From positions 1-29,420 of IMG/VR virus record IMGVR_UViG_3300050821_004633: 29,420 bases of DNA, one strand, 5' to 3'. Positions 15,852 through 29,290 of the stretch are shown here, piece by piece (positions within the stretch are counted from its first letter, which is position 1; each line of letters opens with the position of its first letter). Made by a program: the position numbers and the translations under genes. Under the pieces are notes generated by a model. The model worked only from the letters and a program-made list of their open reading frames with translations. It had not been told where the DNA came from and ran no database searches. The DNA is from a virus.

Positions 15852-17585
15852 TTATGCACAGTCCCTCCACAGCTTGGCGGGACCTGCCGTGCCGACATTC
15901 CGCGCGAGTCCGAGGCTCTCCAGTTTGTTGAGCGCCTTCGACATATATGGTCGGTCTGGCCTTTCAGGAAGTGCCGTTCCGTGAATGGCGGCTATCCGGC
16001 TTTGCAATTCCCTGATGGTGGCGGGAATGCTGTCCAGTACTTCAAGCACCTTCTGCTCGGCCGCAGTCAGTTCCGGGTGTTCCCGGTCCGGCTCGGCAGC
16101 GGTGATCTTGAGCACCAGCGGCGCATCCTCGCTGGCCGTGTGAGTGAGAAAGGCGATTTCGTGGGCGCGGTGCAGCCAGCCGCGCCGGTCCTTGGTGACG
16201 CTCAGCCTGGATGTCCCGTTTTCCGTCTTGCTGAACGCCTTGACGGGCGCGATCTTGTAGGCCACGTCGGTGGCCGCGAGCTTGGCTCCGCTGCCGCGGG
16301 CGTACCGGGACGGTTCGGTGTTCTTGGTGTCGTGGTCGATGACGAGGACGGCGGCGTTGTGCTCTCGTGCCGCCACCGTCAGCACCTGTGAGTAGAACCG
16401 GGTCACGTCGGCGGCGGCGTTCTCATCCAGTCCTGCCCGCGCGAGGAACGCCGCCGAGCTGTCCCAGGCGACGACAGCGGGCTTGCGCTCGGCGAGCACG
16501 GCGTTCAGCATGGCGACGTCCTCAGCGTTCCATGAGCGGGACGGGAACTGGATGTAGCCGATCCGCTCGCCGGCCACCGTGCCGAGCGCCTGGAACTTCT
16601 CCACGACGATCTCCCGGCCGCCTTCCTCGTCGAGGAACAGCACGGGGCCCTCGCCGCGGATGGCGTGCAGCATCCACCAGCAGGCGAGCGTGGTCTTGCC
16701 GCAGTCAGGCGGCCCTGACAGCGTGTGCACGGCACCGCGGTAGAGCAGGCCGCCGCAGATGAGCACGGGCAGCGGGACGTCCTCGGTCGCCGGTTCCAGG
16801 TCGATGACGGCCAGGGCGCGCGATGCGGGCTGCTGGAGCACCAGCTCGGCGAGCGAGTGCCCTGCGGCGAGGTGGTCGGTGGCGTCCTTGCCGTCCGCCG
16901 CCTCGGCGACGGTGACGGTGCGGGCGATGCCGCCCAGGTGCGCGGCGACGTCGGCGGCGTGCTTGCGGCCGGGTTCGTCGCGGTCGGCGATGATGACGAT
17001 GATCGCGTCCTTGAACCACTGGTCGTACTCGCCGCGCCATTTGCCCGCGCCGCCGGGCGACGTGGTGGCGACCCCGCCGGCGCGCTCCACCGAGTGGACG
17101 TCTTTCTCGCCCTCGGTGATGTAGACGGTCCTCCCTTCGCTGATCGCGGTGATGAGCTTCGGCAGGCGGTACGGCACCCGCTGCATGCCCCCGAGACTCC
17201 AGCGCCACCCCGACTTCTTGGTGCTGTCGGGCCGTCGCTGGGGGAACTGCTTGTCAGCGGTGCGGCATACCTGGTAGAGCAGGCTGCCGTGCTCATCGGT
17301 GTAGTCATAGACGGCGATCGCCTCGCCGAACGGCGTCCACTCGCCCTTGTCGCGTTCCTCACGCGGCTTGCTGACGTCCGCCAGCTCCAGGCCGAGAGCG
17401 TCAAGGATGGCGTCGCGCTCGCATCCGGCGTGGCATTTGAAGACGACAGGCTGTTCTGTCCCGCGCGCGACTGAAAGGCTTGCCTTCCGGTCCTCGTGGG
17501 CGGGGCACTGCGCCATCCAGTAGCCGCCGTGCTGGCGGACTCCGTCCAGTTTGGCGAGGACGAACTGTAGGGCGTCATCGTCCAC
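15852..17585 (-). CDS. bifunctional primase-helicase (CHC2/TOPRIM/RecA-like)
   Basis: This 577-residue protein should prime and unwind DNA during phage replication. A zinc-binding primase start has Cys27, His30, Cys51 and Cys55 (CPAHEDRKASLS ... CHAGC). A TOPRIM domain follows with Glu158/160 (VYITEGEKD) and Asp201/203 (IIADRDEPG). From about residue 270 there is a RecA-like ATPase: Walker A GPPDCGKTTL (291-300), Walker B VVAWDSS (371-377) and VIDHDTKN. The last 90 residues look like a winged helix (AEQKVLEVLDSIPATIREL). GTG start directly after the upstream TGA. Confidence 0.9.
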   Translation of the reverse strand: MDDDALQFVLAKLDGVRQHGGYWMAQCPAHEDRKASLSVARGTEQPVVFKCHAGCERDAILDALGLELADVSKPREERDKGEWTPFGEAIAVYDYTDEHGSLLYQVCRTADKQFPQRRPDSTKKSGWRWSLGGMQRVPYRLPKLITAISEGRTVYITEGEKDVHSVERAGGVATTSPGGAGKWRGEYDQWFKDAIIVIIADRDEPGRKHAADVAAHLGGIARTVTVAEAADGKDATDHLAAGHSLAELVLQQPASRALAVIDLEPATEDVPLPVLICGGLLYRGAVHTLSGPPDCGKTTLACWWMLHAIRGEGPVLFLDEEGGREIVVEKFQALGTVAGERIGYIQFPSRSWNAEDVAMLNAVLAERKPAVVAWDSSAAFLARAGLDENAAADVTRFYSQVLTVAAREHNAAVLVIDHDTKNTEPSRYARGSGAKLAATDVAYKIAPVKAFSKTENGTSRLSVTKDRRGWLHRAHEIAFLTHTASEDAPLVLKITAAEPDREHPELTAAEQKVLEVLDSIPATIRELQSRIAAIHGTALPERPDRPYMSKALNKLESLGLARNVGTAGPAKLWRDCA

Positions 17586-20590: not shown

Positions 20591-20699
20591 CTAGTCGGCG
20601 ACGTAGGCGATTTCGTCGAGCTGCTCACGCTTGGTCGCGGATGGCGGGGAGTTGTGTTTGCTGTTGGGGTGTGAGGGTGGTGATGCGTGGTTTAGGCAT
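20591..20699 (-). pseudogene. remnant of a short gene (N-terminus resembling DUF6745-type proteins)
   Basis: An ATG overlapping the annealing-protein stop begins PKPRITTLTPQQQTQLPAIR, then DQA and a stop at 20625. This matches how I remember DUF6745-type actinobacterial proteins beginning (TLTPEQxxxxPxxRDEW). After the stop, another frame reads KREQLDEIAYVAD to a TAG at 20591. The two pieces look like the ends of deleted genes joined together. The family link is from memory and moderate. Confidence 0.4.
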
Positions 20700-21927
20700 T
20701 GTTGGCCTCGCTGTCCGCCGCGGGCTTCTCGCCGGTCTTGAGCAGGTCGGCGAGCTTGCGTGCGCCGCCGTCAGGAAGCGGCTTGACCGTCGCGATCACC
20801 TGCGCCGCCTCGTCCTGGGTGAGTTCGGTCAGCGCGGCCAGCGCGGCCACCTTCACGATCCGGGCACAGGCGGTGAGCATGTCCGCGTAGCCGTCTTCGG
20901 TTTCGTGGTCGATGCCGAGCCGCTTGAATTCCTTCTCGATCTGGGAGCGCTGGCCGCTGGCGATACCCGCTGGCGGCCGGTCGTCGGGGGCCTCGCCCGC
21001 GGACTCCGCGGCCGGAGGTCCGGCGGTTGCGTCAGCGCGGGGGGTTTGCTGACGGTCCGCGGGCGAGGGGTCTTCGGGCGCGCGGCGGCCGCGCCGTGCG
21101 GGCTTGCCCTGCTGTGCGGGCTGGCCGGTGATGTCGGCGGCGGTGACACGCGGCTGCTCGGGCGGGAACTCGTCGTCGACGGTGATGGTGCCCTGCTTCA
21201 GCGAGTCGTAGATGACGGCCAGCTGGCCAAGGTCGACGGCGGTGAGGTCGTCGACCGAGTCGTGGCCGAACTTGGCGGCCAGCCGGGCCGGGCTGACATG
21301 GCGCTGCTCGAAGGCCTTGACGGCTTCAGCGATGCGCGTGGCCAGCGGCTTGCCGCCGCCATCCTCCAGCGTCTTCTGGCACAGCGCGATGGCCTGCTCG
21401 CGGTACCAGACGGGCAGCACAGAGAAGATCGCCTCACGCAGCCGACGGGCGCCGTTATTGGCGTTGTTCTCGTAGATGTCACGCATGTCGGTGAGGTCTT
21501 TGACCCCTGCGCGGGTATCGCGCTTGTGCGGGACGATGAAGATCGACGCCGAGCGGGTGTTGGTTTCCAGGTCCCACGCGAACGCCTGCATCTCCGATTC
21601 GGAGGCGAGGTCGTCGCGGCGCAGCTCGGTGACGCCGTGCTCGATGTTGCCCCAGCATCGGGCGAGTTCGCGGGCGAGGTGGACGGACGGCCCGGAGACG
21701 GTCTCCCCGGCGCGGGGGAAGCGGAAGAACGCGCGCTGCGCCAGCTCTTCCTGGCGGCACGCTTCCTCCATCGCCCTGATGGCGGCCTGGGTGCTGCGCG
21801 GGCACTGCTGGGCGACGATGACCATGGCCTGCACCTGGGCGATGGCGCGGGACTGTTCGATGGCGGTGCCCTGGCTGACGCGCGCCGGCGCGCCGACGGG
21901 ACGGACGGTCTCTAGTGCGGTTGTCAT
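20692..21927 (-). CDS. probable single-strand annealing protein of the phage recombination pair
   Basis: This 411-residue protein directly follows the exonuclease gene (ATGA overlap), the usual place of the annealing partner. Core features: AIEQSRAIAQVQAMVIVAQQ, FFRFPRAGETVSGPSVHLAR, CWGNIEHGVTELRRDD, EMQAFAWDLETNT, DIYENNANNGARRLREAIFS. A protein type with GPSxxLAxxxAxxWGNI...WDxETN...NxGARRLR occurs beside phage exonucleases; I cannot tell whether it is RecT-like or Rad52-like. Residues 245-325 are a Pro/Ala/Asp linker. The last 80 residues form a separate helical domain (QIEKEFKRLGID...). Confidence 0.65.
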   Translation of the reverse strand: MTTALETVRPVGAPARVSQGTAIEQSRAIAQVQAMVIVAQQCPRSTQAAIRAMEEACRQEELAQRAFFRFPRAGETVSGPSVHLARELARCWGNIEHGVTELRRDDLASESEMQAFAWDLETNTRSASIFIVPHKRDTRAGVKDLTDMRDIYENNANNGARRLREAIFSVLPVWYREQAIALCQKTLEDGGGKPLATRIAEAVKAFEQRHVSPARLAAKFGHDSVDDLTAVDLGQLAVIYDSLKQGTITVDDEFPPEQPRVTAADITGQPAQQGKPARRGRRAPEDPSPADRQQTPRADATAGPPAAESAGEAPDDRPPAGIASGQRSQIEKEFKRLGIDHETEDGYADMLTACARIVKVAALAALTELTQDEAAQVIATVKPLPDGGARKLADLLKTGEKPAADSEANNA

Positions 21928-22799
21928 GCGTAGAAGTCCTCTCGGGCGCGCGACCAGCGGGGTAGCGCGATCGTCTCGATTTCAGGGGAATAGCCGGGCC
22001 ACGCGTCGGCGCGTCCTTCGGCTTCGGCTTCGCGGCAGTCACGCCAGATCTCCATGGCGCGTTCCGCGTCGGCGCGGCCGATCTGCATGGCCTCGGCGTC
22101 GAGCTGGTAGGTAGCGACCAGGTAAGGGGGCGCCTTCTCCTGGGCGACCAGGATGAACGTGGGATATTCGGTCAGCACGCCGCCGAACATGGCCTGGTAG
22201 GCGTCGCAGTACCAGGCGGCCTGGAGGTAGTAGCCGAAATTGGCGACTGATTTCGGGAAGCCGTGCTTGCTGGCGTCCTGGCAGGTCTTGTAGTCGCCGA
22301 TGATCGGGCGCACGTCCAGGGACGGCATCCAGTCGAACCGGCACCGCCGCCATATCCCGAACGGCTCGTCGACCCAGAACGCGGACATCTCGGCCTGCCC
22401 GCGGCCGGGGCTGAACAGTGCGGCGGCTACCGGGTGCTTCCGCAGCTCGGCGGCCATGTCGCGGACCACTTTCAGGTCCTTGCTCAGTAGCGGGACAGCG
22501 CCGCGGGCGCGGGCTTCGTCGGCCGCCTCATTGGCTGCCTTCGTGCGCCAGTTGTCCGCCCTCACCTCCGCGATCTCGGCACCGACGCCGAGCACCAGCT
22601 TGTGCGCGGCGGTGCCGAGGTCCAGCGCGTCGGAGGACGGTTCGGGGTTGTCGAGGTGGTAGCGGTAGCGGGCGGGGCCGCCGTCGGCGAGCAGCTTCTT
22701 GGCGCCACTGGCGCTCAGACTGCCCTCCGGGACAGGGTCGGCGTGGTACTGGTCCTCGGGGATGTCGTAGATGCCCGGTTCGGTGATGATCGCGGTCAT
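21924..22799 (-). CDS. lambda-exonuclease/RecE-type PD-(D/E)XK exonuclease
   Basis: This 291-residue nuclease should resect DNA ends for single-strand annealing. It starts MTAIITEPGIYDIPEDQYHA and SLSASGAKKLL, typical of RecE-like exonucleases. Catalytic motifs: His66 in LGTAAHKL, Glu137 in QAEMSAFW, Asp169-Tyr-Lys171 in IIGDYKTCQDA, and the Gln193xxxTyr197 motif in YYLQAAWYCDAY. The ATG overlaps the upstream stop (ATGA) and the annealing protein follows in the same way. Length is usual. Confidence 0.88.
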   Translation of the reverse strand: MTAIITEPGIYDIPEDQYHADPVPEGSLSASGAKKLLADGGPARYRYHLDNPEPSSDALDLGTAAHKLVLGVGAEIAEVRADNWRTKAANEAADEARARGAVPLLSKDLKVVRDMAAELRKHPVAAALFSPGRGQAEMSAFWVDEPFGIWRRCRFDWMPSLDVRPIIGDYKTCQDASKHGFPKSVANFGYYLQAAWYCDAYQAMFGGVLTEYPTFILVAQEKAPPYLVATYQLDAEAMQIGRADAERAMEIWRDCREAEAEGRADAWPGYSPEIETIALPRWSRAREDFYA

Positions 22800-23149
22800 C
22801 CGAGGTTCCCCTTGTGCAGGTCGTTGATCAGCGCGGCGATCGCCGTCGCAGCGTTGCCGCCGCCCCCGCACCACGCGATCCCCTCGCACCGCACCGTGCA
22901 GGTGCACGGCGTGGCGTTGTCCTCCAGGCTGGCGCACCAGGTGCAGTCGGTGAGCGTGCCGAGGTCGGCCCGCACGGGCACGGCCTGCACGGCCTGCTCG
23001 GCGCGGGTCAGCGGCGCGGTGATGAGCTTGCGGTCGCGGTGCCAGGCCCGGCGGGCCGCGCGGACGGCCCTGACGGCCAGGACGCCGAGCCACATGACGC
23101 CGAGCGCGACCAGGACGGCCACGAGGTCTGTGAGCAGGTCGCTGATCAT
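22796..23149 (-). CDS. membrane protein with Cys-rich C-terminus
   Basis: This 117-residue protein starts at ATG (ATGA overlap). Residues 5-30 are a membrane helix (LTDLVAVLVALGVMWLGVLA), followed by a very basic stretch (RAVRAARRAWHRDRK), so the N-terminus is probably outside and the rest cytoplasmic. The C-terminal part has CTWCASLEDNATPCTCTVRC and GIAWCGGGGNAA: six or seven cysteines that may bind metal. It sits directly upstream of the exonuclease. Function unknown. Confidence 0.65.
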   Translation of the reverse strand: MISDLLTDLVAVLVALGVMWLGVLAVRAVRAARRAWHRDRKLITAPLTRAEQAVQAVPVRADLGTLTDCTWCASLEDNATPCTCTVRCEGIAWCGGGGNAATAIAALINDLHKGNLG

Positions 23150-23514
23150 GATGTGCTCCGTTCGCGCAGGTCGCGCTTGTAGCGTTCGATGGTGCGCGGG
23201 CTGACTCCGAGCAGCTCGGCAGCCTGAGCGGCGGTGACATGGCCGGGAAGCGGTTCGTTGTCGCCGGAGATGTCGTGGAGCCGCAGTGACGCCAGCATGT
23301 TCAGGCGCTCTTCGCGCGCGGTGAGCTTCTTGCCGGTGGCGGCCTCGTCGTCGAGCCAGGGCGTGAGCGTGTCGACGCCGGTGCCCCGGTAGACGTAGGG
23401 ACGGAAGCCGGGCGTGTAGTTGCGCGGGACGGCGCCGGGCTCGGTTTGCACGGTCAGGTAGTGGACGGGTCGCCTGCGCGGAAAGAGCGGGTGCGGGACC
23501 GGGCGGCGGCTCAC
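23146..23514 (-). CDS. HTH protein (sigma-factor-like helix-turn-helix)
   Basis: This 122-residue protein starts at GTG in a GTGA overlap. The N-terminal half is basic and aromatic (HPLFPRRRPVHYLTVQTEP, PYVYRGTG). From residue 70 a charged helix (TAREERLNMLASLRLHD) leads to VTAAQAAELLGVSPRTIERY, a clear helix-turn-helix, and then a basic end (KRDLRERSTS). It may regulate the early operon or act as a directionality factor for the integrase. Neither is shown. Confidence 0.7.
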   Translation of the reverse strand: MSRRPVPHPLFPRRRPVHYLTVQTEPGAVPRNYTPGFRPYVYRGTGVDTLTPWLDDEAATGKKLTAREERLNMLASLRLHDISGDNEPLPGHVTAAQAAELLGVSPRTIERYKRDLRERSTS

Positions 23515-23768: not shown

Positions 23769-24275
23769 CGGTATCCCTCCCGCTCCGTGTACGGCCTCGC
23801 CCAGTCGAACGTGTCGGCCATGGCGGCCTGCGGCCTGGTCTCGGCTGCCCGCTGCGGTGCCGTGTTGGCCTTGAGCGCGACGGGCGCGTACCCGCGCCGG
23901 GGGACGGGCGGCGGGGTGATGACCCACCGTGCGGCGGGTGCCCGCCCCGAAGCGGGCAGGGCGGGCACCTCCCCCGGTGCCGCAGACCGGAGGTCGACCG
24001 GGAAGGCTGCCCGCCCCGCCCGTACCGGGGCGGGCAGCCTCTTCTCCGGTGCCGTAGCGCCAACTCCGGGACCGGAGGGCATGAGGGTGATGTCGGCGCG
24101 CAGCTGGCGGCACCACCACCAGATGACGACGGCTTCCCAGGCGCGGTGCAGTAGCGACGGGGAGCGCTGGCCGCGTTCTTGCTGGCGGGGGCTGGTCTTG
24201 GCGTGGCGCGGGGTGTAGCCGCGTTTGCGGGCCAGGTCTGCGGGGATGAGGTCGGGCGCCAGGAGGGGCGGTCAC
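23765..24275 (-). pseudogene. frameshifted gene of unknown function (about 169 residues if restored)
   Basis: The coding frame (very high third-position GC) runs from just after the Top6A-like stop to 23765 and reads LAPDLIPADLARKRGYTPRH...RAWEAVVIWWWCRQLRADIT, ending DTFDWARPYTEREGYR. It has no ATG or GTG at its 5' end. The expected GTG (GTGA overlap at 24275) is in another frame. Removing one C from the four-base run at 24265-24268 would join them as MTALLAPDLIPADLARK. So either the gene is broken, the base is a sequencing error, or a CTG is used. An internal ATG at 24082 could give a 105-residue product. Confidence 0.6.
23937..24039. repeat. two tandem long hairpins inside the frameshifted gene
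   Basis: Hairpin 1: GGTGCCCGCCC (23937-23947) with GGGCGGGCACC (23959-23969). Hairpin 2: GGCTGCCCGCCCCG (24005-24018) with CGGGGCGGGCAGCC (24026-24039), a perfect 14-bp stem with a 7-base loop. Each is followed on the plus strand by a similar tail ending CCGGTGCCG, so they look like two degenerate copies of one unit about 68 bases apart. They could stop transcription or be inserted repeat elements. Confidence 0.75.
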
Positions 24276-25192
24276 TGGCCCGCTCCCGTCAGTCCGTCGA
24301 GCGTGCGCAGGATCTCGGCGCGTTCCTCGTCGCCGCGCTCCCGCGCAGCCTCAAGCGCGTCGTGGTCGATGACCTCGCTGATAGCCGCGTCTATCTCGGC
24401 GGCCAGGACGTCGGGCGGCAGCGCCTCGGCCTGAACGGTGTCGGGCATCCGCTCGCCGCGTACGTCGGTGCGCTTCTGCGGTGACGTCGGCAGCCCGTAG
24501 CGCTCGATCTGGTCGGGCGTGACTGCGATGCGCCGCCAGTCGACCTCTTGCCGCCTGGCCAGCTCGCCGACGAAAGCGCCGACGTCAGCCGCCAGGGAGT
24601 CGATGATCGCGCAGCCGGAGGGGTCGTAGTCGCCGACGTGGAAGATGATGACGGGCTTGTCCTGCTGCGCGATGCGCTCGGCGGTCTCGTACTTGTCGGT
24701 CAGGCCGTTGAAGCCCCCGGCGGTGTACGAGGTGATGCCGTAGGGGTTGGCGACGGCGGCGGCCTGGGGCAGCATGCCGCCCGCTTCGACCCACAGTTCG
24801 CAGTGGTACGGCTGGCCGTCTGTCTCGTCGTGCTGGTAATAGTCTGCGCTGCGCTGGACGTAGCGCCAGAACGCGCGCGGGCTTGACCAGCCCGGGCCGC
24901 CTTGCGAGTCGGTGCCGTCGTCGCGGATCGAGCTGAACGGGATGATCCGGGCCCGGCGCGCCCGGTTCAGGTACTCGCACAGCCGGGCGTACGCCTGTTC
25001 GGTCTTCTCGTAGTGGTGGGCACCGACCAGCCGGTAGAAGATCTGGCGGTTGGTGAGCGGTAGCTGGGCGCGGTACTCGCGGAGGATGCCCTGAACGGTG
25101 TCCAGCAGTGCGAGCGTTTCCGGGCGGGGGTTCCACTCGGCGAAGCCGCGCACGCGGGTTGAGGTGTACGTGCGGCCGGTGACGGTGCTCAC
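24272..25192 (-). CDS. orphan Spo11/topoisomerase VI-A-like protein (TOPRIM)
   Basis: This 306-residue protein resembles the A subunit of topoisomerase VI and Spo11, which cut DNA through a tyrosine. TNRQIFYRLVGAHHYEK matches the R-x-I-Y/F-Y motif of the winged-helix domain, with Tyr53 at the catalytic place. Next come LNRARRARIIPFSSIRDDG and a TOPRIM domain with Glu136 (LWVEAGGM) and Asp188/Asp190 (FHVGDYDPSG). The end has GLPTSPQKRTDVRGERMP and a helical tail. No B subunit (GHKL ATPase) is in the window. Orphan short relatives called Mini-A are known from mobile elements. GTG start in a GTGA overlap. Confidence 0.75.
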   Translation of the reverse strand: MSTVTGRTYTSTRVRGFAEWNPRPETLALLDTVQGILREYRAQLPLTNRQIFYRLVGAHHYEKTEQAYARLCEYLNRARRARIIPFSSIRDDGTDSQGGPGWSSPRAFWRYVQRSADYYQHDETDGQPYHCELWVEAGGMLPQAAAVANPYGITSYTAGGFNGLTDKYETAERIAQQDKPVIIFHVGDYDPSGCAIIDSLAADVGAFVGELARRQEVDWRRIAVTPDQIERYGLPTSPQKRTDVRGERMPDTVQAEALPPDVLAAEIDAAISEVIDHDALEAARERGDEERAEILRTLDGLTGAGQ

Positions 25193-25353
25193 TTCGCTGG
25201 CTCCTTCGCTGCGGCGTTAGCCGCCTTGATCGCGGCGTTCGCCTCGGCCTTGCGGACAGCGCGCCCGCCCGCCCGGTCGGCGGTGATCTTCGCGGCGAGC
25301 CGGTCAGCGAGGACCGCGACGATGGCGGCGAACAGATCCCAGTTCGCGTTCAC
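25189..25353 (-). CDS. 54-residue Ala/Lys-rich small protein
   Basis: The gene starts at GTG in a GTGA overlap and ends in another GTGA with the Top6A-like gene. It encodes NANWDLFAAIVAVLADRLAA, then KITADRAGGRAVRKAEANAA and a helical Ala/Lys tail. The first 20 residues form an amphipathic or weakly hydrophobic helix and the rest is basic and helical, so it may bind nucleic acid or a partner. No homologue recognised. Confidence 0.65.
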   Translation of the reverse strand: MNANWDLFAAIVAVLADRLAAKITADRAGGRAVRKAEANAAIKAANAAAKEPAK

Positions 25354-25814
25354 ATCCGGCTCGCTTCCGGTGCGGCAACGCCCCACTTGCGGCCCTGCTC
25401 GTCCTCGTGCATGGTGTGCGGCGGGTCGAACGGGAGCTTGCACCAGGAGCCGACGATGTGACCTGGGGCGGCGCACCGGGCTTCGGGCGCGTCCGCGTCG
25501 CCGAGCACGTCGCGGAGGACGTCGGAGACACGGGGGACGGTGTTCGCGGGGTCGGCGGGGGTGTCGCACGCGCCGGACGGCTGCACTGCCGCCTTCTCGG
25601 CGATCCTGTTCAGCGTGACCGCGCGCTCGTGCAAGTGCACGGCAGCGTCGGGGCCGGTGCAGTACTCGCTGAGATCGAGGTAGGCGGCGATCGTCTCCCG
25701 CATGCCCATGACGGCCAGCGGGGAGACGCGGACGCTGGCGGCCTGCTGTGCGGCGGCGAGCAGTTCGCGCAGCGCGAAGACCTCGGCTTCGAGCTGGATT
25801 TTCGTCTTGCTCAT
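25350..25814 (-). CDS. hypothetical protein with N-terminal coiled coil
   Basis: This 154-residue protein starts at an ATG with AGGAG 7 bases upstream; an upstream in-frame start is not supported. It opens SKTKIQLEAEVFALRELLAA followed by AQQAASVRV, a probable coiled coil. The middle is helical (GMRETIAAYLDLSEYC, AAVHLHERAVTLNRIAEKA). The end has CAAPGHIVGSWCKLPFDPPH and MHEDEQGRKWGV, a Cys/His module often seen at the C-terminus of small actinophage proteins. It follows a hairpin, so it may start a transcript segment. Confidence 0.7.
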   Translation of the reverse strand: MSKTKIQLEAEVFALRELLAAAQQAASVRVSPLAVMGMRETIAAYLDLSEYCTGPDAAVHLHERAVTLNRIAEKAAVQPSGACDTPADPANTVPRVSDVLRDVLGDADAPEARCAAPGHIVGSWCKLPFDPPHTMHEDEQGRKWGVAAPEASRM

Positions 25815-25909: not shown

Positions 25910-26056
25910 TTATGCGGGGACTGGCTCGGCGAGCCTGACGAGGTGCGGCGCGAGGATCGCGGCGACGCGGTCGGCCTGTTCCTGGCTGAGCGGGGGCAGT
26001 GCGGCGCTATCGCGGTCGGCTGCGGCGATCACCTCGGCCAGGGTGCGGCAGATCAT
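25910..26056 (-). CDS. 48-residue protein coupled to the leftward regulator
   Basis: The ATG overlaps the stop of the Cro-like gene (ATGA). The product reads ICRTLAEVIAAADRDSAALP, then PLSQEQADRVAAILAPHLVR and LAEPVPA. The PLxxEQADRVAxILAPHL segment is a pattern frequent in small actinobacterial phage proteins. It is short and helical. Being second in the early operon, it may assist regulation or excision, but that is a guess. Confidence 0.7.
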   Translation of the reverse strand: MICRTLAEVIAAADRDSAALPPLSQEQADRVAAILAPHLVRLAEPVPA

Positions 26057-26307
26057 GACGCGGCCTTCGCGATCTGCTCGTAGCCTTCGACGGTGATCGC
26101 GGCGAGCGGGATGTTCAGCTTGTCCGCGATAGCCCGGCAGACCTGCGGGGTTGCTCTCCGCGCGCCAAGCTCGATGTTGCTGAGCTGCGGTCGGCTGATC
26201 CCGATGGCGTAGGCCAGCTCGGCGATCTTCAGCCCGTGAGCTTCCCGCAGGGCCCTGATGGTGGCGCCTAGGCGGGTCGCCTCAGGGTCGGTTGTGGCTT
26301 GCTCCAT
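26053..26307 (-). CDS. Cro-like XRE-family regulator (leftward)
   Basis: This 84-residue protein is almost only a helix-turn-helix: LGATIRALREAHGLKIAELA, then YAIGISRPQLSNIELGAR, with a short tail. It is the first gene of the leftward early operon. Its promoter is near consensus and its ATG lies 7 bases after the -10 box, so the mRNA should be leaderless. One 17-bp operator fills the spacer of that promoter. By analogy with other phage switches it would be the Cro-type partner of the divergent repressor; it could alternatively act as the repressor itself. Confidence 0.8.
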   Translation of the reverse strand: MEQATTDPEATRLGATIRALREAHGLKIAELAYAIGISRPQLSNIELGARRATPQVCRAIADKLNIPLAAITVEGYEQIAKAAS

Positions 26308-26314
26308 ACAGGAG

Positions 26315-26344
26315 ACAATACGAAACCTTCGGAAACCTTGTCAA
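26315..26344 (-). promoter_or_regulatory. leftward early promoter
   Basis: Minus strand: -35 TTGACA (26339-26344, perfect), an 18-base spacer, -10 TATTGT (26315-26320). The Cro-like ATG begins 7 bases further, at the predicted transcription start. The spacer consists almost entirely of operator O1, so a bound regulator would block RNA polymerase directly. Confidence 0.75.
26322..26338. promoter_or_regulatory. operator O1 (17 bp)
   Basis: GAAACCTTCGGAAACCT is the exact reverse complement of O2 at 26424-26440. Internally GAAACCTT occurs twice 9 bases apart (the second extends one base past the 17-mer). It lies between the -35 and -10 boxes of the leftward promoter. Confidence 0.75.
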
Positions 26345-26440: not shown

Positions 26441-26455
26441 ACGGAAGATGTGCAC

Positions 26456-27037
26456 ATGGATGCACACGGCAGGCTGCGCGCCGGGCAGGCGACAGCAGCC
26501 CGGCGCGGCAGGATGGATCTCACCCAGGAAGAGCTGGCCAGCAAGGCTGGCGTGTCCGCCAGGACGATCGGCGACCTTGAGTCAGGGAAGCGGTGGCCCA
26601 TAGCCCGCAACCGGACGCGCATCGAGCTGGCTCTCGAATGGCCAGACGGCGAGATCGCTCGCAAGGCGCAAGAGCCTGCACCAGAGACTCCCCTGATCCG
26701 TCCCGGCCTGTATCGCGAACTCGTGCGGGAAGTCGGCGACGACGACGCGGCGGCGGTGCTGGAACTGCTCGCCGAACGCCGCCGCAGGAAGGAGTTAGCC
26801 CTTCGATCGCGCCATGTGCGCGATGTCGGCCACCGCGTGAATAAGGAACCGCTTGTCGGCATCCTTGTCCTTGACCACGACCGTCCCGGCCACCGCCGCG
26901 CCTGTGGCGACGATCACCACCCGCACGGGCAGCAGCCATATCCCGGCGATAGCCGCGGCCCATGCGATGGCTGTCGCGGTCCTGAGCAAGATGCGCCTGG
27001 TTCTGTGCATACCGATCCCCCCTTAGTGATGCGGTAG
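26456..27037 (+). CDS. XRE-family repressor (rightward), 3' part doubtful
   Basis: The ATG lies 8 bases after GGAAG. Residues 18-45 are an HTH of the common actinobacterial type (GRMDLTQEELASKAGVSART, IGDLESGKR). A linker and helical region follow (LYRELVREVGDDDAAAVLEL, LAERRRRKEL). Beyond about residue 114 the frame continues over the convergent membrane-protein gene with weaker coding signal, so the original end is uncertain. It is the likely lysogeny repressor: divergent from the Cro-like gene and sharing operators. It lacks an evident peptidase domain, so induction by RecA cleavage is not predicted. Confidence 0.68.
   Translation: MDAHGRLRAGQATAARRGRMDLTQEELASKAGVSARTIGDLESGKRWPIARNRTRIELALEWPDGEIARKAQEPAPETPLIRPGLYRELVREVGDDDAAAVLELLAERRRRKELALRSRHVRDVGHRVNKEPLVGILVLDHDRPGHRRACGDDHHPHGQQPYPGDSRGPCDGCRGPEQDAPGSVHTDPPLVMR
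26795..27010 (-). CDS. small two-span membrane protein
   Basis: This 71-residue protein starts at ATG, 5 bases after AAGGGGGGA. Two hydrophobic segments (TATAIAWAAAIAGIWLLPV and VVIVATGAAVAGTVVV) are followed by a charged helix (KDKDADKRFLIHAVADIAHM). It is convergent with the repressor gene, whose frame runs through it on the other strand. Expressed in the lysogeny region, it could be a superinfection-exclusion or membrane regulatory protein. Function is not shown by sequence. Confidence 0.65.
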   Translation of the reverse strand: MHRTRRILLRTATAIAWAAAIAGIWLLPVRVVIVATGAAVAGTVVVKDKDADKRFLIHAVADIAHMARSKG

Positions 27038-27791: not shown

Positions 27792-27845
27792 CTGGAAATC
27801 GACTCCGAATGCAACTGGAGTATCAAGGTCATCGATGAGGGTTAG
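27792..27845 (+). pseudogene. 3' remnant of a second copy of the exported-protein gene
   Basis: After the stop codon, an in-frame stretch reads LEIDSECNWSIKVIDEG and a TAG. It matches the end of the upstream protein (LEIDTGCAWTVKVINQS) position for position around the Cys and Trp residues. Only the last 17 codons survive. The TAG overlaps the integrase stop. It is the trace of a replaced or deleted paralogue. Confidence 0.65.
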
Positions 27846-29290
27846 AGCGGTTCCAGCCGGACATCCTCGGTGCGGAATCCGGGCCCGCGGCCCGACGCGG
27901 GCAGCACGGTCACCCGCAAGCACGAGGACACCAGTGCGCGGCTCACCGGCAGCGGGAGCGCCCTGAACTCCTCCAGGGTGATGCCGCGGTAGTCGGCGAG
28001 CAGCCGCGAGCCCTCGTTCGCCGCCTCCAGCCCGCGCAGCTCGGTGATGCGCGCGTCGATCGAATCCAGTCGCCTCATCAGCAGCCGCGTGCGCCCCGCG
28101 CTGCCCCGGTAGTCGGCCAGCGCCGCCTCGACGTCGGCGCGCTCACCGGCCAGCGCCGTCCACTCCGGCATGAAGTCCGCGGCGGGCACGCGCGCCTGCG
28201 GGTTGAGCGGGCTGTTCAGCCGGGCGACAGTGTGCACCGACACCCAGGCGTCCAGGTGCGCGGCGTTGCGGTACACCTTCCCGCAGCCGCCCCTGTCCCG
28301 CTTGGAGCAGGCGTAGACGACCGTCTTGTACGACCGGCCCTTGGCCCGGTCGCCGCTGGTGATGTGAGCGATCCGCATCGGCCGGCCGCACCGGCCGCAG
28401 CAGGCGATGCCGGACAGCAGCCAGCGCGCCGGGTGCGTGCCGCGCGGGAAGGCGCCGGCGCGCCTGTCGACGGCCATGCGGGCCCGCTCCCATGTCTCGC
28501 GGTCCAGCACCGGCTCCCAGGCTGCCTTCGTCTCGCCGTCCGGCATCAGCCCGGCGTAGCGCGGGTTGCGCAGTATCCGCTTCAAGGTGCTGCGATCAAG
28601 AGGCTTGGCCGCCGGGCTGGCCCATCCCCGGGCGGCCAGGTCCGTCACGATCGCCCCGGCGGACTCCCCGGCGATTGTCCGCCGCGCCATCTCGCGCACG
28701 ATGTCAGCCTCGGTAACCTCCCGGCGGCCCGCGACCTCGCACCGGTCGGCGGCCAGGTGCGTCACCCCGTCGCTGGCGAACCCGAACCGCCTGCCGCCCG
28801 GGCCGCCCGCCATCACCTTCCCGTCCCGGCGCCACCGGTCGAAGCGGGCTTTCTGGCGCCGGGAGATGTTCGCGGACTCGCGGCGCGCCATGGCCGCTTC
28901 GATGGACAGCACGAACTGGTCCTCAGCCGAGTCGAGGTCGCGCTCGCCGGTCGGGCTGGCCAGGCGGATGCCCTTGCCGCGGGCGAGGTTGAGCAGCATT
29001 TCCAGGTCCCACGGCTGCCTGATCAGCCGGTCACCGTGGTAGACGACGATCGCGCGGACGTGCCCGGCCTCGACGTCGGCGAGCATCCGTTCCCACTCCG
29101 GGCGGTGGCGGTCATGGTGCCACGCGGACTTGTTGTTGTCGCTGTAGACGTCGAACACGTCCCATTCGCGGCCCTCGCACAGCTGGCGGCAGATGCGCGC
29201 CTGGTCGTCAACCTTGGTCGTGTCGCCGTCGCGGGCGAGGGAAAGTCGGCAGTAGATGGCGGCCGGAAGCCGCCGGGCTACGGTTGTCAC
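27842..29290 (-). CDS. int: large serine recombinase (phage integrase)
   Basis: This 482-residue enzyme integrates and excises the phage. The N-terminal resolvase domain has Ser17 as nucleophile (AAIYCRLSLARDG), KVDDQARICRQLC, and VVYHGDRLIRQPWDLE with the catalytic arginine. Then come a recombinase domain (GGRRFGFASDG; RNPRYAGLMPDG) and a zinc ribbon (ACCGRCGRPM and ACSKRDRGGCGK). A coiled-coil region follows (ERADVEAALADYRG; RRLDSIDARITELRG). Size is usual for actinophage large serine integrases. The GTG start has no ribosome binding site but lies 8 bases from a -10 box, so a leaderless mRNA is likely. Confidence 0.93.
   Translation of the reverse strand: MTTVARRLPAAIYCRLSLARDGDTTKVDDQARICRQLCEGREWDVFDVYSDNNKSAWHHDRHRPEWERMLADVEAGHVRAIVVYHGDRLIRQPWDLEMLLNLARGKGIRLASPTGERDLDSAEDQFVLSIEAAMARRESANISRRQKARFDRWRRDGKVMAGGPGGRRFGFASDGVTHLAADRCEVAGRREVTEADIVREMARRTIAGESAGAIVTDLAARGWASPAAKPLDRSTLKRILRNPRYAGLMPDGETKAAWEPVLDRETWERARMAVDRRAGAFPRGTHPARWLLSGIACCGRCGRPMRIAHITSGDRAKGRSYKTVVYACSKRDRGGCGKVYRNAAHLDAWVSVHTVARLNSPLNPQARVPAADFMPEWTALAGERADVEAALADYRGSAGRTRLLMRRLDSIDARITELRGLEAANEGSRLLADYRGITLEEFRALPLPVSRALVSSCLRVTVLPASGRGPGFRTEDVRLEPL

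What the first reader, a model, noticed from the sequence alone, without database searches (positions are those of the whole stretch)
24272..25192. Orphan Spo11/topoisomerase VI-A-like protein in a phage early operon
Seen: RQIFY with Tyr53 at the place of the catalytic tyrosine of Top6A/Spo11, a TOPRIM domain with Glu136, Asp188 and Asp190, and no GHKL-type B subunit in the window. Known: topoisomerase VI needs A and B subunits, and short orphan A-like proteins (Mini-A) occur on mobile elements with no clear function. Inference: this may be a DNA-nicking or cleaving enzyme serving phage replication, recombination or chromosome attack. It sits upstream of an exonuclease/annealing pair, which is suggestive of a break-then-repair route.
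Basis: partly seen in the sequence, partly recalled or inferred. Interest (0 to 1): 0.8.

Follow-up and report, generated by a model that had tools for sequence, protein, structure and literature searches.

The report
Phage-borne orphan Spo11-like DNA-cutting enzyme
A phage gene encodes a small relative of the enzyme that cuts DNA to start meiosis, apparently without its usual partner subunit; it belongs to a known but functionally uncharacterised family called Mini-A, so it is a good test case rather than a new kind of protein.

Summary
The gene is on the minus strand (25192 to 24272, 306 aa, GTG start). It is a member of Mini-A, the orphan topoisomerase VI-A/Spo11-like family of mobile elements: it aligns with Pseudomonas phage NP1 Mini-A (26%, E 2e-23), and a family profile hits an archaeal plasmid protein annotated "Topo Mini-A" (E 8.5e-60). 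AlphaFold2 (pLDDT 92) gives a winged-helix-like domain plus a TOPRIM domain matching Top6A (Z 11.9, 2.3 A over 131 residues). Tyr53, Arg49, Glu136, Asp188 and Asp190 are nearly invariant, also in relatives not chosen by motif. Top6B was found in 0 of 58 Mini-A records and genomes, GHKL ATPases in 0 of 21. The window sits in a well-supported subclade (38 of 66 tree rows) that holds none of the 13 phage-database proteins aligned. Best explanation: a B-independent homodimer that cuts DNA with Tyr53 plus metal in early replication or recombination. Exonuclease/annealer genes recur nearby, in different versions, but with the models used only 10 of 34 records have an exonuclease within 5.5 kb. Chromosome attack is disfavoured because plasmids carry the gene too. 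No activity is shown; reviews call the function unknown.

The parts
24272..25192 (-). Mini-A (Top6A/Spo11-like) gene, 306 aa, GTG start, AAGGAG ribosome site
24908..25135 (-). winged-helix-like domain, about residues 20-95
   Evidence: model of residues 1-125, pLDDT 84; top VIA rows are Fur/PerR, MukE-MukF and linker histone, Z up to 6.6; that these are winged helices is recalled
25034..25036 (-). Tyr53 codon, predicted catalytic tyrosine
   Evidence: 67 of 68 rows Tyr, the other row has a gap there; codon checked
25046..25048 (-). Arg49 codon, four residues before the Tyr, as Spo11 R131 and Top6A R102
   Evidence: 67 of 68 rows, one gap; Spo11/Top6A numbering from passages of PMC11746154 and PMC13040014
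24374..24805 (-). TOPRIM domain, residues 130-273
   Evidence: Z 11.9, rmsd 2.3 over 131 residues to Top6A 1d3y
24785..24787 (-). Glu136 codon, predicted metal ligand
   Evidence: 67 of 68 rows Glu, one Lys (L031)
24629..24631 (-). Asp188 codon, predicted metal ligand
   Evidence: 67 of 68 rows, one gap
24623..24625 (-). Asp190 codon, predicted metal ligand
   Evidence: 67 of 68 rows, one gap
25189..25353 (-). small ORF (54 aa) overlapping the Mini-A start (GTGA), possible translational coupling
   Evidence: no Pfam hit
25350..25814 (-). ORF upstream in the same operon, unknown
26053..26307 (-). HTH_3 protein in Cro position, first gene of the leftward operon
   Evidence: PF01381 E 7.3e-14
26315..26344 (-). 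promoter-like site TTGACA-18-TATTGT before the operon
   Evidence: 1 found, mean 0.2 in shuffles of the region
26450..27037 (+). divergent repressor-type HTH_3 gene
   Evidence: PF01381 E 3.1e-8
21924..22799 (-). exonuclease VIII-type PDDEXK nuclease
   Evidence: phrog_412 E 1.6e-94, PF12684 E 1.3e-22, both on the longer ORF 21924-23240; gene limits
20692..21927 (-). exonuclease partner, phrog_3657, function unknown, possible ssDNA annealer
   Evidence: a C-terminal stretch is shared with the RecT-like protein of L027 (E 2e-4)
15852..17585 (-). primase/helicase of the same leftward region
   Evidence: phrog_239 E 6.5e-38; AAA_25 E 1.4e-16
27842..29290 (-). large serine integrase: temperate element
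   Evidence: phrog_95 E 3.3e-80

Best explanation
The gene encodes a Mini-A protein: a stand-alone Top6A/Spo11-type enzyme that works without a B subunit. Two copies would form a homodimer around DNA. The winged helix of one copy presents Tyr53, oriented by Arg49, to the metal site (Glu136, Asp188, Asp190) of the other copy's TOPRIM domain. Tyr53 then attacks the backbone, leaving a 5'-phosphotyrosine link and a cut that can be resealed or passed to repair. It would be made early in infection or induction and act on replicating phage DNA, most likely to open DNA for recombination-linked replication or to relax and unlink it. Shown here: sequence, predicted fold, near-invariance of the catalytic residues, no B subunit found, and a switch-plus-leftward-operon setting. 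Inferred by homology: dimer, tyrosine chemistry, B-independence. Inferred from neighbourhood only: the replication/recombination role.
For: Family: phrog_6247 E 8.2e-37; BLASTP to phage NP1 Mini-A 26% over 258 columns, E 2e-23, with Tyr, Glu and DxD in register, hhalign probability 99.6%; A3 profile to an archaeal 'Topo Mini-A' plasmid protein E 8.5e-60. Fold: pLDDT 92; TOPRIM Z 11.9 to Top6A, 11.0 to MksG nuclease, 10.3 to JetD, 9.5 to Spo11; N-terminal domain like winged helices, Z up to 6.6. Catalysis: in 68 aligned sequences, window included, Tyr53 and Arg49 67 (one gap), Glu136 67 (one Lys), Asp188 and Asp190 67 (one gap); in the 31 not picked by motif Tyr 30, Arg 30, Glu 31, Asp 30 and 30, the misses being gaps. 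No partner: PF09239 in 0 of 58 records and genomes; PF13589 and PF02518 in 0 of 21 each; controls ring. B-independence is plausible: mouse SPO11 dimers cut DNA alone with hybrid active sites (PMC11922746, abstract and section 8 read). Setting: promoter-like site and two HTH_3 genes facing apart; exonuclease and partner downstream; neighbours in 18 clade contigs include primases, PDDEXK nucleases, RecT-like proteins, RusA and polymerases.
Against: No activity has been shown for this protein, and my searches listed no biochemical study of any Mini-A; a review calls the function unknown. Direct sequence similarity to Top6A is weak. Foldseek's whole-chain superposition on Top6A is poor (TM 0.30, rmsd 16 A); only the TOPRIM domain superposes well. 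The N-terminal domain matches winged helices in general, below the Z at which a family can be claimed; Top6A is not in its list. No dimer model could be made. One relative has Lys for Glu136 (L031), and some genome copies are cut or broken (L026; L055 with an inside stop). With the models used, 24 of 34 records have no exonuclease within 5.5 kb. A 5'-protein-blocked end is not a direct substrate for a RecE-type exonuclease, so a break-repair route needs a clean-up step (recalled knowledge).
Confidence: 0.6

Rival explanations
1. ATP-independent topoisomerase: Mini-A cuts and reseals to relax or unlink phage and plasmid DNA, with no stable breaks.
For: Two Topo VIII enzymes relax supercoils, one of them without ATP (review passage, PMC7614492). 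A review suggests a role in plasmid maintenance (PMC8084294 passage). The family is on circular plasmids as well as phages. SPO11 may reseal nicks (PMC11922746 abstract).
Against: Strand passage in type II enzymes is normally driven by a GHKL ATPase, none of which was found in the records searched. Hosts have their own gyrase (recalled).
Confidence: 0.25
2. Replication initiator: Tyr53 nicks or cuts at an origin to prime replication, like a Rep protein with another fold.
For: An 8.8-kb archaeal plasmid carries Mini-A; 10 of its other 15 annotated proteins were scanned and none passed a Pfam cut-off. A 15-kb Paenibacillus element is similar: 10 of its 28 other proteins were scanned and no known Rep was found.
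Against: The window has its own primase/helicase, and primases and polymerases occur near Mini-A in other phages. The unscanned ORFs and the unassigned larger proteins could be Rep genes.
Confidence: 0.12
3. Attack on host DNA or on competing elements: a nuclease that degrades the chromosome or invading DNA, like JetD/MksG effectors.
For: TOPRIM fold near MksG (Z 11.0) and JetD (Z 10.3). Of five Mini-A proteins scanned against PADLOC, three hit JetD models weakly (best E 0.00025, 0.0047 and 0.058).
Against: The window protein and its nearest relative L027 have no PADLOC hit at E up to 1. Plasmids, which live with their host, carry the gene. The Tyr is invariant where present. No SMC-type partner is among the families shown for the neighbours, but only the first 25 families of each tally are shown.
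Confidence: 0.08
4. Non-catalytic DNA-binding protein that keeps the fold but not the activity.
For: Two Microbacterium phage homologues are annotated only 'DNA binding protein'. Many Topo VIII enzymes are said to be in variable states of inactivation (review passage). L031 has Lys for Glu136.
Against: Five active-site residues are near-invariant across a family with identities down to about 25%.
Confidence: 0.05

Closest known systems
Mini-A (Takahashi et al. 2020, paper not held; named in PMC7614492, PMC8185306, PMC8084294), example Pseudomonas phage NP1
   Same: About 300 aa, orphan A-type protein on phages and plasmids, RQxxY, Glu and DxD in register over 258 aligned columns.
   Different: Only 26% identical to NP1. 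It lies in a separate, strongly supported group (100/99) in which the Lys after the catalytic Glu is Ala or Thr, mostly with IRDD and QAEAL motifs in place of IEDR-type and ELDAL.
Topoisomerase VI subunit A (Top6A)
   Same: TOPRIM fold (Z 11.9, 2.3 A over 131 residues), Tyr with Arg at -4, metal acids.
   Different: Top6B found in 0 of 58 records and genomes; PF04406 does not match; sequence similarity barely detectable; whole-chain TM only 0.30.
Spo11
   Same: Same catalytic set; Phe before the catalytic Tyr as in yeast; mouse SPO11 acts without a partner in vitro.
   Different: TOPRIM Z 9.5 only; bacterial virus, no meiotic partners.
Topoisomerase VIII
   Same: Carried by mobile elements; a review says Mini-A is close to it (PMC8185306 passage); weak ATP-independent activities reported (PMC7614492 passage).
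   Different: Topo VIII has a GHKL part (recalled); no GHKL model matches in 21 records.
JetD / MksG (Wadjet) nucleases
   Same: TOPRIM fold Z 10.3-11.0.
   Different: Work with an SMC complex and lack a Top6-type catalytic Tyr (both recalled, not tested). The window protein has no PADLOC match.

Membership tests
Mini-A | homology to a protein named Mini-A over most of its length | tested here: met
   NP1 26% over 258 columns, E 2e-23; A3 profile to archaeal Topo Mini-A, E 8.5e-60
Mini-A | truncated A-type protein with winged helix and TOPRIM only | tested here: met
   306 aa; the winged helix is matched only generically
Mini-A | no associated B subunit | tested here: met
   PF09239 in 0 of 58; PF13589 and PF02518 in 0 of 21 each; virus records may be incomplete
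Mini-A | carried by mobile elements | tested here: met
   phage window with capsid, portal, protease and integrase genes; phages and plasmids
Mini-A | diagnostic motifs and C-terminal features of the original paper | not tested
   paper not held
Topoisomerase VI A subunit | Pfam TP6A_N match | tested here: not met
   PF04406 no match in the window, controls ring
Topoisomerase VI A subunit | partner Top6B in the same genome | tested here: not met
Type IIB TOPRIM fold | TOPRIM like Top6A | tested here: met
   Z 11.9, rmsd 2.3, 131 aligned; Foldseek top row E 1.3e-4 but TM 0.30
Type IIB winged helix | winged helix specifically of Top6A type carrying the Tyr | tested here: inconclusive
   generic winged-helix rows, Z up to 6.6; Top6A not listed
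Type IIB catalytic set | Tyr, Arg at -4, Glu, Asp-x-Asp conserved | tested here: met
Tyrosine DNA-cleaving enzyme | Tyr-dependent cleavage, 5' covalent link | not testable with these tools
   needs purified protein
JetD/Wadjet effector | PADLOC JetD model match | tested here: not met
   window protein 0 families at E up to 1; three of the four other Mini-A proteins scanned hit weakly

The most novel reading that the evidence does not exclude
A distinct Mini-A clade encodes a complete, partner-free Spo11-like break maker that starts recombination-dependent replication of temperate phages and plasmids, paired with exchangeable exonuclease/annealer modules: a viral counterpart of meiotic break formation with no B subunit.
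Probability: 0.25. Interest if true: 0.82.

Novelty: new member of a known kind. Interest (0 to 1): 0.5.

Why it matters
Mini-A is a stripped-down form of the Top6A/Spo11 nuclease whose function reviews call unknown. Showing whether a natural B-free A protein cuts, nicks or relaxes DNA would bear on how Spo11 arose and on how such cuts are controlled without an ATPase. The window's clade gives a compact example in a clear leftward operon behind a phage switch. The recurrence of different exonuclease/annealer pairs near it suggests a testable recombination role.

Tried and rejected
Single-sequence search of IMG/VR found nothing; an alignment query was needed. Pfam has no family above cut-off for the protein. 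Foldseek against viral models gave no match at E up to 0.001, and the isolated N-terminal domain gave none in PDB; Top6A is not in the VIA list for that domain. The profile of the N-terminal domain finds no topoisomerase in PDB by sequence. No Top6A sequence was obtained for a direct profile comparison: PF04406 rings in 0 of 296 Actinomycetota genomes. No near nucleotide relative was found: megablast of window:15000-29420 against plasmids and of window:1-25000 against phages.

A general exonuclease/annealer association was tested and found mild. PF12705 was hit in 18 of 34 records (16 over the cut-off), 7 of the 18 within 5.5 kb of Mini-A; one-sided KS p 0.025 against uniform placement. RecT PF03837 was hit in 3 of 34, 2 over the cut-off, AAA_24 in 6 of 34, 5 over the cut-off, phrog_298 in 3 of 34, phrog_4171 in 4 of 34. 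There is no control set of phages without Mini-A, and DUF3799 was not searched in all 34. Two large clusters in the all-against-all ORF comparison proved to overlap the Mini-A gene on the other strand.

Rows dropped: L018, L024 and L026 before the 68-row count (cut, over-long or broken), L051 not added (same place as L012), L055 and L058 before the tree. L052 is identical to L011 and L035/L037 are near-identical, so rows are not all independent. The neighbour scan used 140 of 246 called neighbour genes of 90 aa or more, picked by hand for length (about 132 aa upwards; some of 135-136 aa were left out).

Full report
What is there. The reading frame at 24272-25192 is on the minus strand and encodes 306 aa from a GTG. 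It has coding-type composition, an AAGGAG site before the start and a GTGA overlap with a preceding 54-aa ORF. It lies in a leftward gene run that begins with an HTH_3 gene (26307-26053), has a promoter-like TTGACA-18-TATTGT at 26344-26315 (1 found, mean 0.2 in shuffles), and faces a divergent HTH_3 gene. The window also has a serine integrase, portal, protease and capsid genes, and a terminase-like protein whose Pfam hits are below the cut-off. It is probably a temperate tailed phage, and 'early operon' is a fair inference.

Family. PHROGs gives phrog_6247 'DNA topoisomerase' (E 8.2e-37). In 50,697 phage records tblastn finds 69, all under 60% identity; among the 60 listed the highest is 29.9%. 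In 72,556 plasmid records it finds 59, the best at 50-53% identity on Streptomyces and Kitasatospora plasmids. Pseudomonas phage NP1, one of the 69, is the Mini-A example in a review figure legend (PMC7614492, passages read). The window protein aligns with NP1 Mini-A at 26% over 258 columns (E 2e-23) with Tyr, Glu and DxD in register. The profile A3 finds an archaeal plasmid protein annotated 'Topo Mini-A' at E 8.5e-60. Membership in Mini-A is therefore well supported; the original paper could not be read.

Active site. Relatives were fetched from genome contigs (15 loci) and viral contigs (24 loci). Those searches used motif patterns that include the Tyr or the Glu, so Tyr and Glu counts from them are biased; the two Asp were not in the patterns. 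Over 51 sequences, window included, Tyr53 is 51 of 51, Glu136 50 of 51 (L031 Lys), Asp188 and Asp190 50 of 51 (L026 broken). Adding further profile and tblastn hits and dropping three poor rows gives 68: Tyr53 and Arg49 67 of 68 (one gap), Glu136 67 of 68, Asp188 and Asp190 67 of 68 (one gap). In the 31 not picked by motif (30 different: L052 equals L011) none of the five residues is substituted; the misses are gaps in cut sequences. Arg49 lies four residues before the Tyr, as R131 does in yeast Spo11 and R102 in M. mazei Top6A (passages of PMC11746154 and PMC13040014).

Fold. AlphaFold2 on 34 sequences gives pLDDT 92 and pTM 0.83. Foldseek puts Top6A first (1d3y, E 1.3e-4), but the whole-chain superposition is poor (TM 0.30, rmsd 16.3 A). 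VIA-align gives Z 11.9, rmsd 2.3 A over 131 residues for residues 130-273 against Top6A, then MksG 11.0, JetD 10.3 and Spo11 9.5. The N-terminal part folded alone (pLDDT 84) is matched at the top by Fur, PerR, MukE-MukF and linker histone at Z up to 6.6, which I recall to be winged-helix domains. That is below the level at which a specific family can be claimed, and Top6A is not in that list.

No partner. Top6B (PF09239) was found in 0 of 58 records and genomes (25 virus records with the window, 22 genomes, 11 phage or plasmid records), while four archaeal controls ring. GHKL models PF13589 and PF02518 match 0 of 21 records each, with all 14 controls ringing. Virus records may be fragments. 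In Actinomycetota the A3 profile rings in 10 of 396 genomes, one of them the genome at the centre of the search and some by short or weak matches; Top6A rings in 0 of 296.

Subclade. In a tree of 66 rows the 38 rows with Ala or Thr after the catalytic Glu form one side of a branch (support 100/99, length 0.94), apart from the 28 with Lys, which include NP1 and the archaeal protein. The five rows named nearest to the window are metagenomic viral contigs (L027 78%). All 13 phage-database proteins aligned fall on the Lys side; the other phage hits were not aligned. Part of the Ala/Thr group was retrieved with a pattern that contains the Glu-Ala motif, but the tree uses whole sequences. Whether the 2020 paper already contained this clade is unknown, so I file it as a new member of a known kind.

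Neighbourhood. The window has an exonuclease VIII-type nuclease and a phrog_3657 protein downstream; L029 (63% identical Mini-A) has homologues of both. The closest relative, L027, has a different exonuclease (phrog_298) and a RecT-like annealer (phrog_4171), also downstream. The two exonucleases show no significant BLAST similarity, though both hold a GDYKT stretch, so distant kinship is possible. The two partner proteins share only a C-terminal stretch of 57 residues (E 2e-4), which supports an annealing role for phrog_3657 without proving it. NP1 has a Sak4-like annealer next to Mini-A and a Cas4-type exonuclease 1.9 kb on, as annotated. So different exonuclease/annealer pairs recur near Mini-A. 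The rule is not general: with the models used and the NP1 annotation, 10 of 34 records have an exonuclease within 5.5 kb: the window, L027, seven of the 18 with a PF12705 hit, and NP1. Among 140 neighbour proteins of 18 clade contigs (140 of 246 called, mostly the longer ones), the families met most often are primases and exonucleases or PDDEXK nucleases (4 members each), then integrases, invertases, terminases, RusA and a family of unknown function (3 each); only the first 25 families of each tally are shown.

Mechanism. From homology: a homodimer with hybrid active sites, Tyr53 of one copy acting with the metal acids of the other. Mouse SPO11 does this without partners and stays bound to 5' ends (PMC11922746, abstract and section 8). 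From distribution: what phages and plasmids share is replication, recombination and segregation of their own DNA, which speaks against host attack as the main role. Two outcomes remain open, stable breaks that feed recombination, or cut-and-reseal relaxation. A stable 5'-linked break would need clean-up before a RecE-type exonuclease could act (recalled knowledge).

Literature. A review says that the function of Mini-A is unknown, with a guess at plasmid maintenance (PMC8084294, passage); another that no archaeal Mini-A had been characterised by 2021 (PMC8185306, passages). Searches for Mini-A with phage, Spo11, topoisomerase VIII, type IIB and related terms listed no biochemical study of Mini-A; most papers of subscription journals are not held.

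Verdict. It is a well-supported member of a known, functionally unsolved family, in a setting that makes the question testable. Interest 0.5.

Noticed in passing
L078:9144-10037 (Paenibacillus durus 15-kb circular element): Mini-A sits on a small circular element with a Zot-domain ATPase and no recognised Rep among the 10 other proteins scanned (of 28), which might be a filamentous-phage-like replicon using Mini-A.
   Followed up: partly
L010:1-8776 (archaeal plasmid P-7H_11): Mini-A is the only protein annotated as an enzyme; 10 of the 15 others were scanned and none passed a Pfam cut-off.
   Followed up: partly
L032:5869-6891, and genes near Mini-A in L035, L037, L046: A gene of one homologous group (phrog_2045 for the L032 member; function unknown) lies near Mini-A in four contigs, one of them (L046) from the other subclade.
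   Followed up: no
L072:907-2397 (Haloterrigena plasmid pHTUR05): A 496-aa haloarchaeal homologue with the catalytic residues kept follows an MCM gene; long branch in the tree.
   Followed up: partly
window:20692-21927: A C-terminal stretch of the phrog_3657 protein is shared with a RecT-like annealer of L027, while the rest shows no significant similarity.
   Followed up: partly
L031:5673-6599: Natural variant with Lys in place of the catalytic Glu136, possibly inactive or a sequencing error.
   Followed up: no
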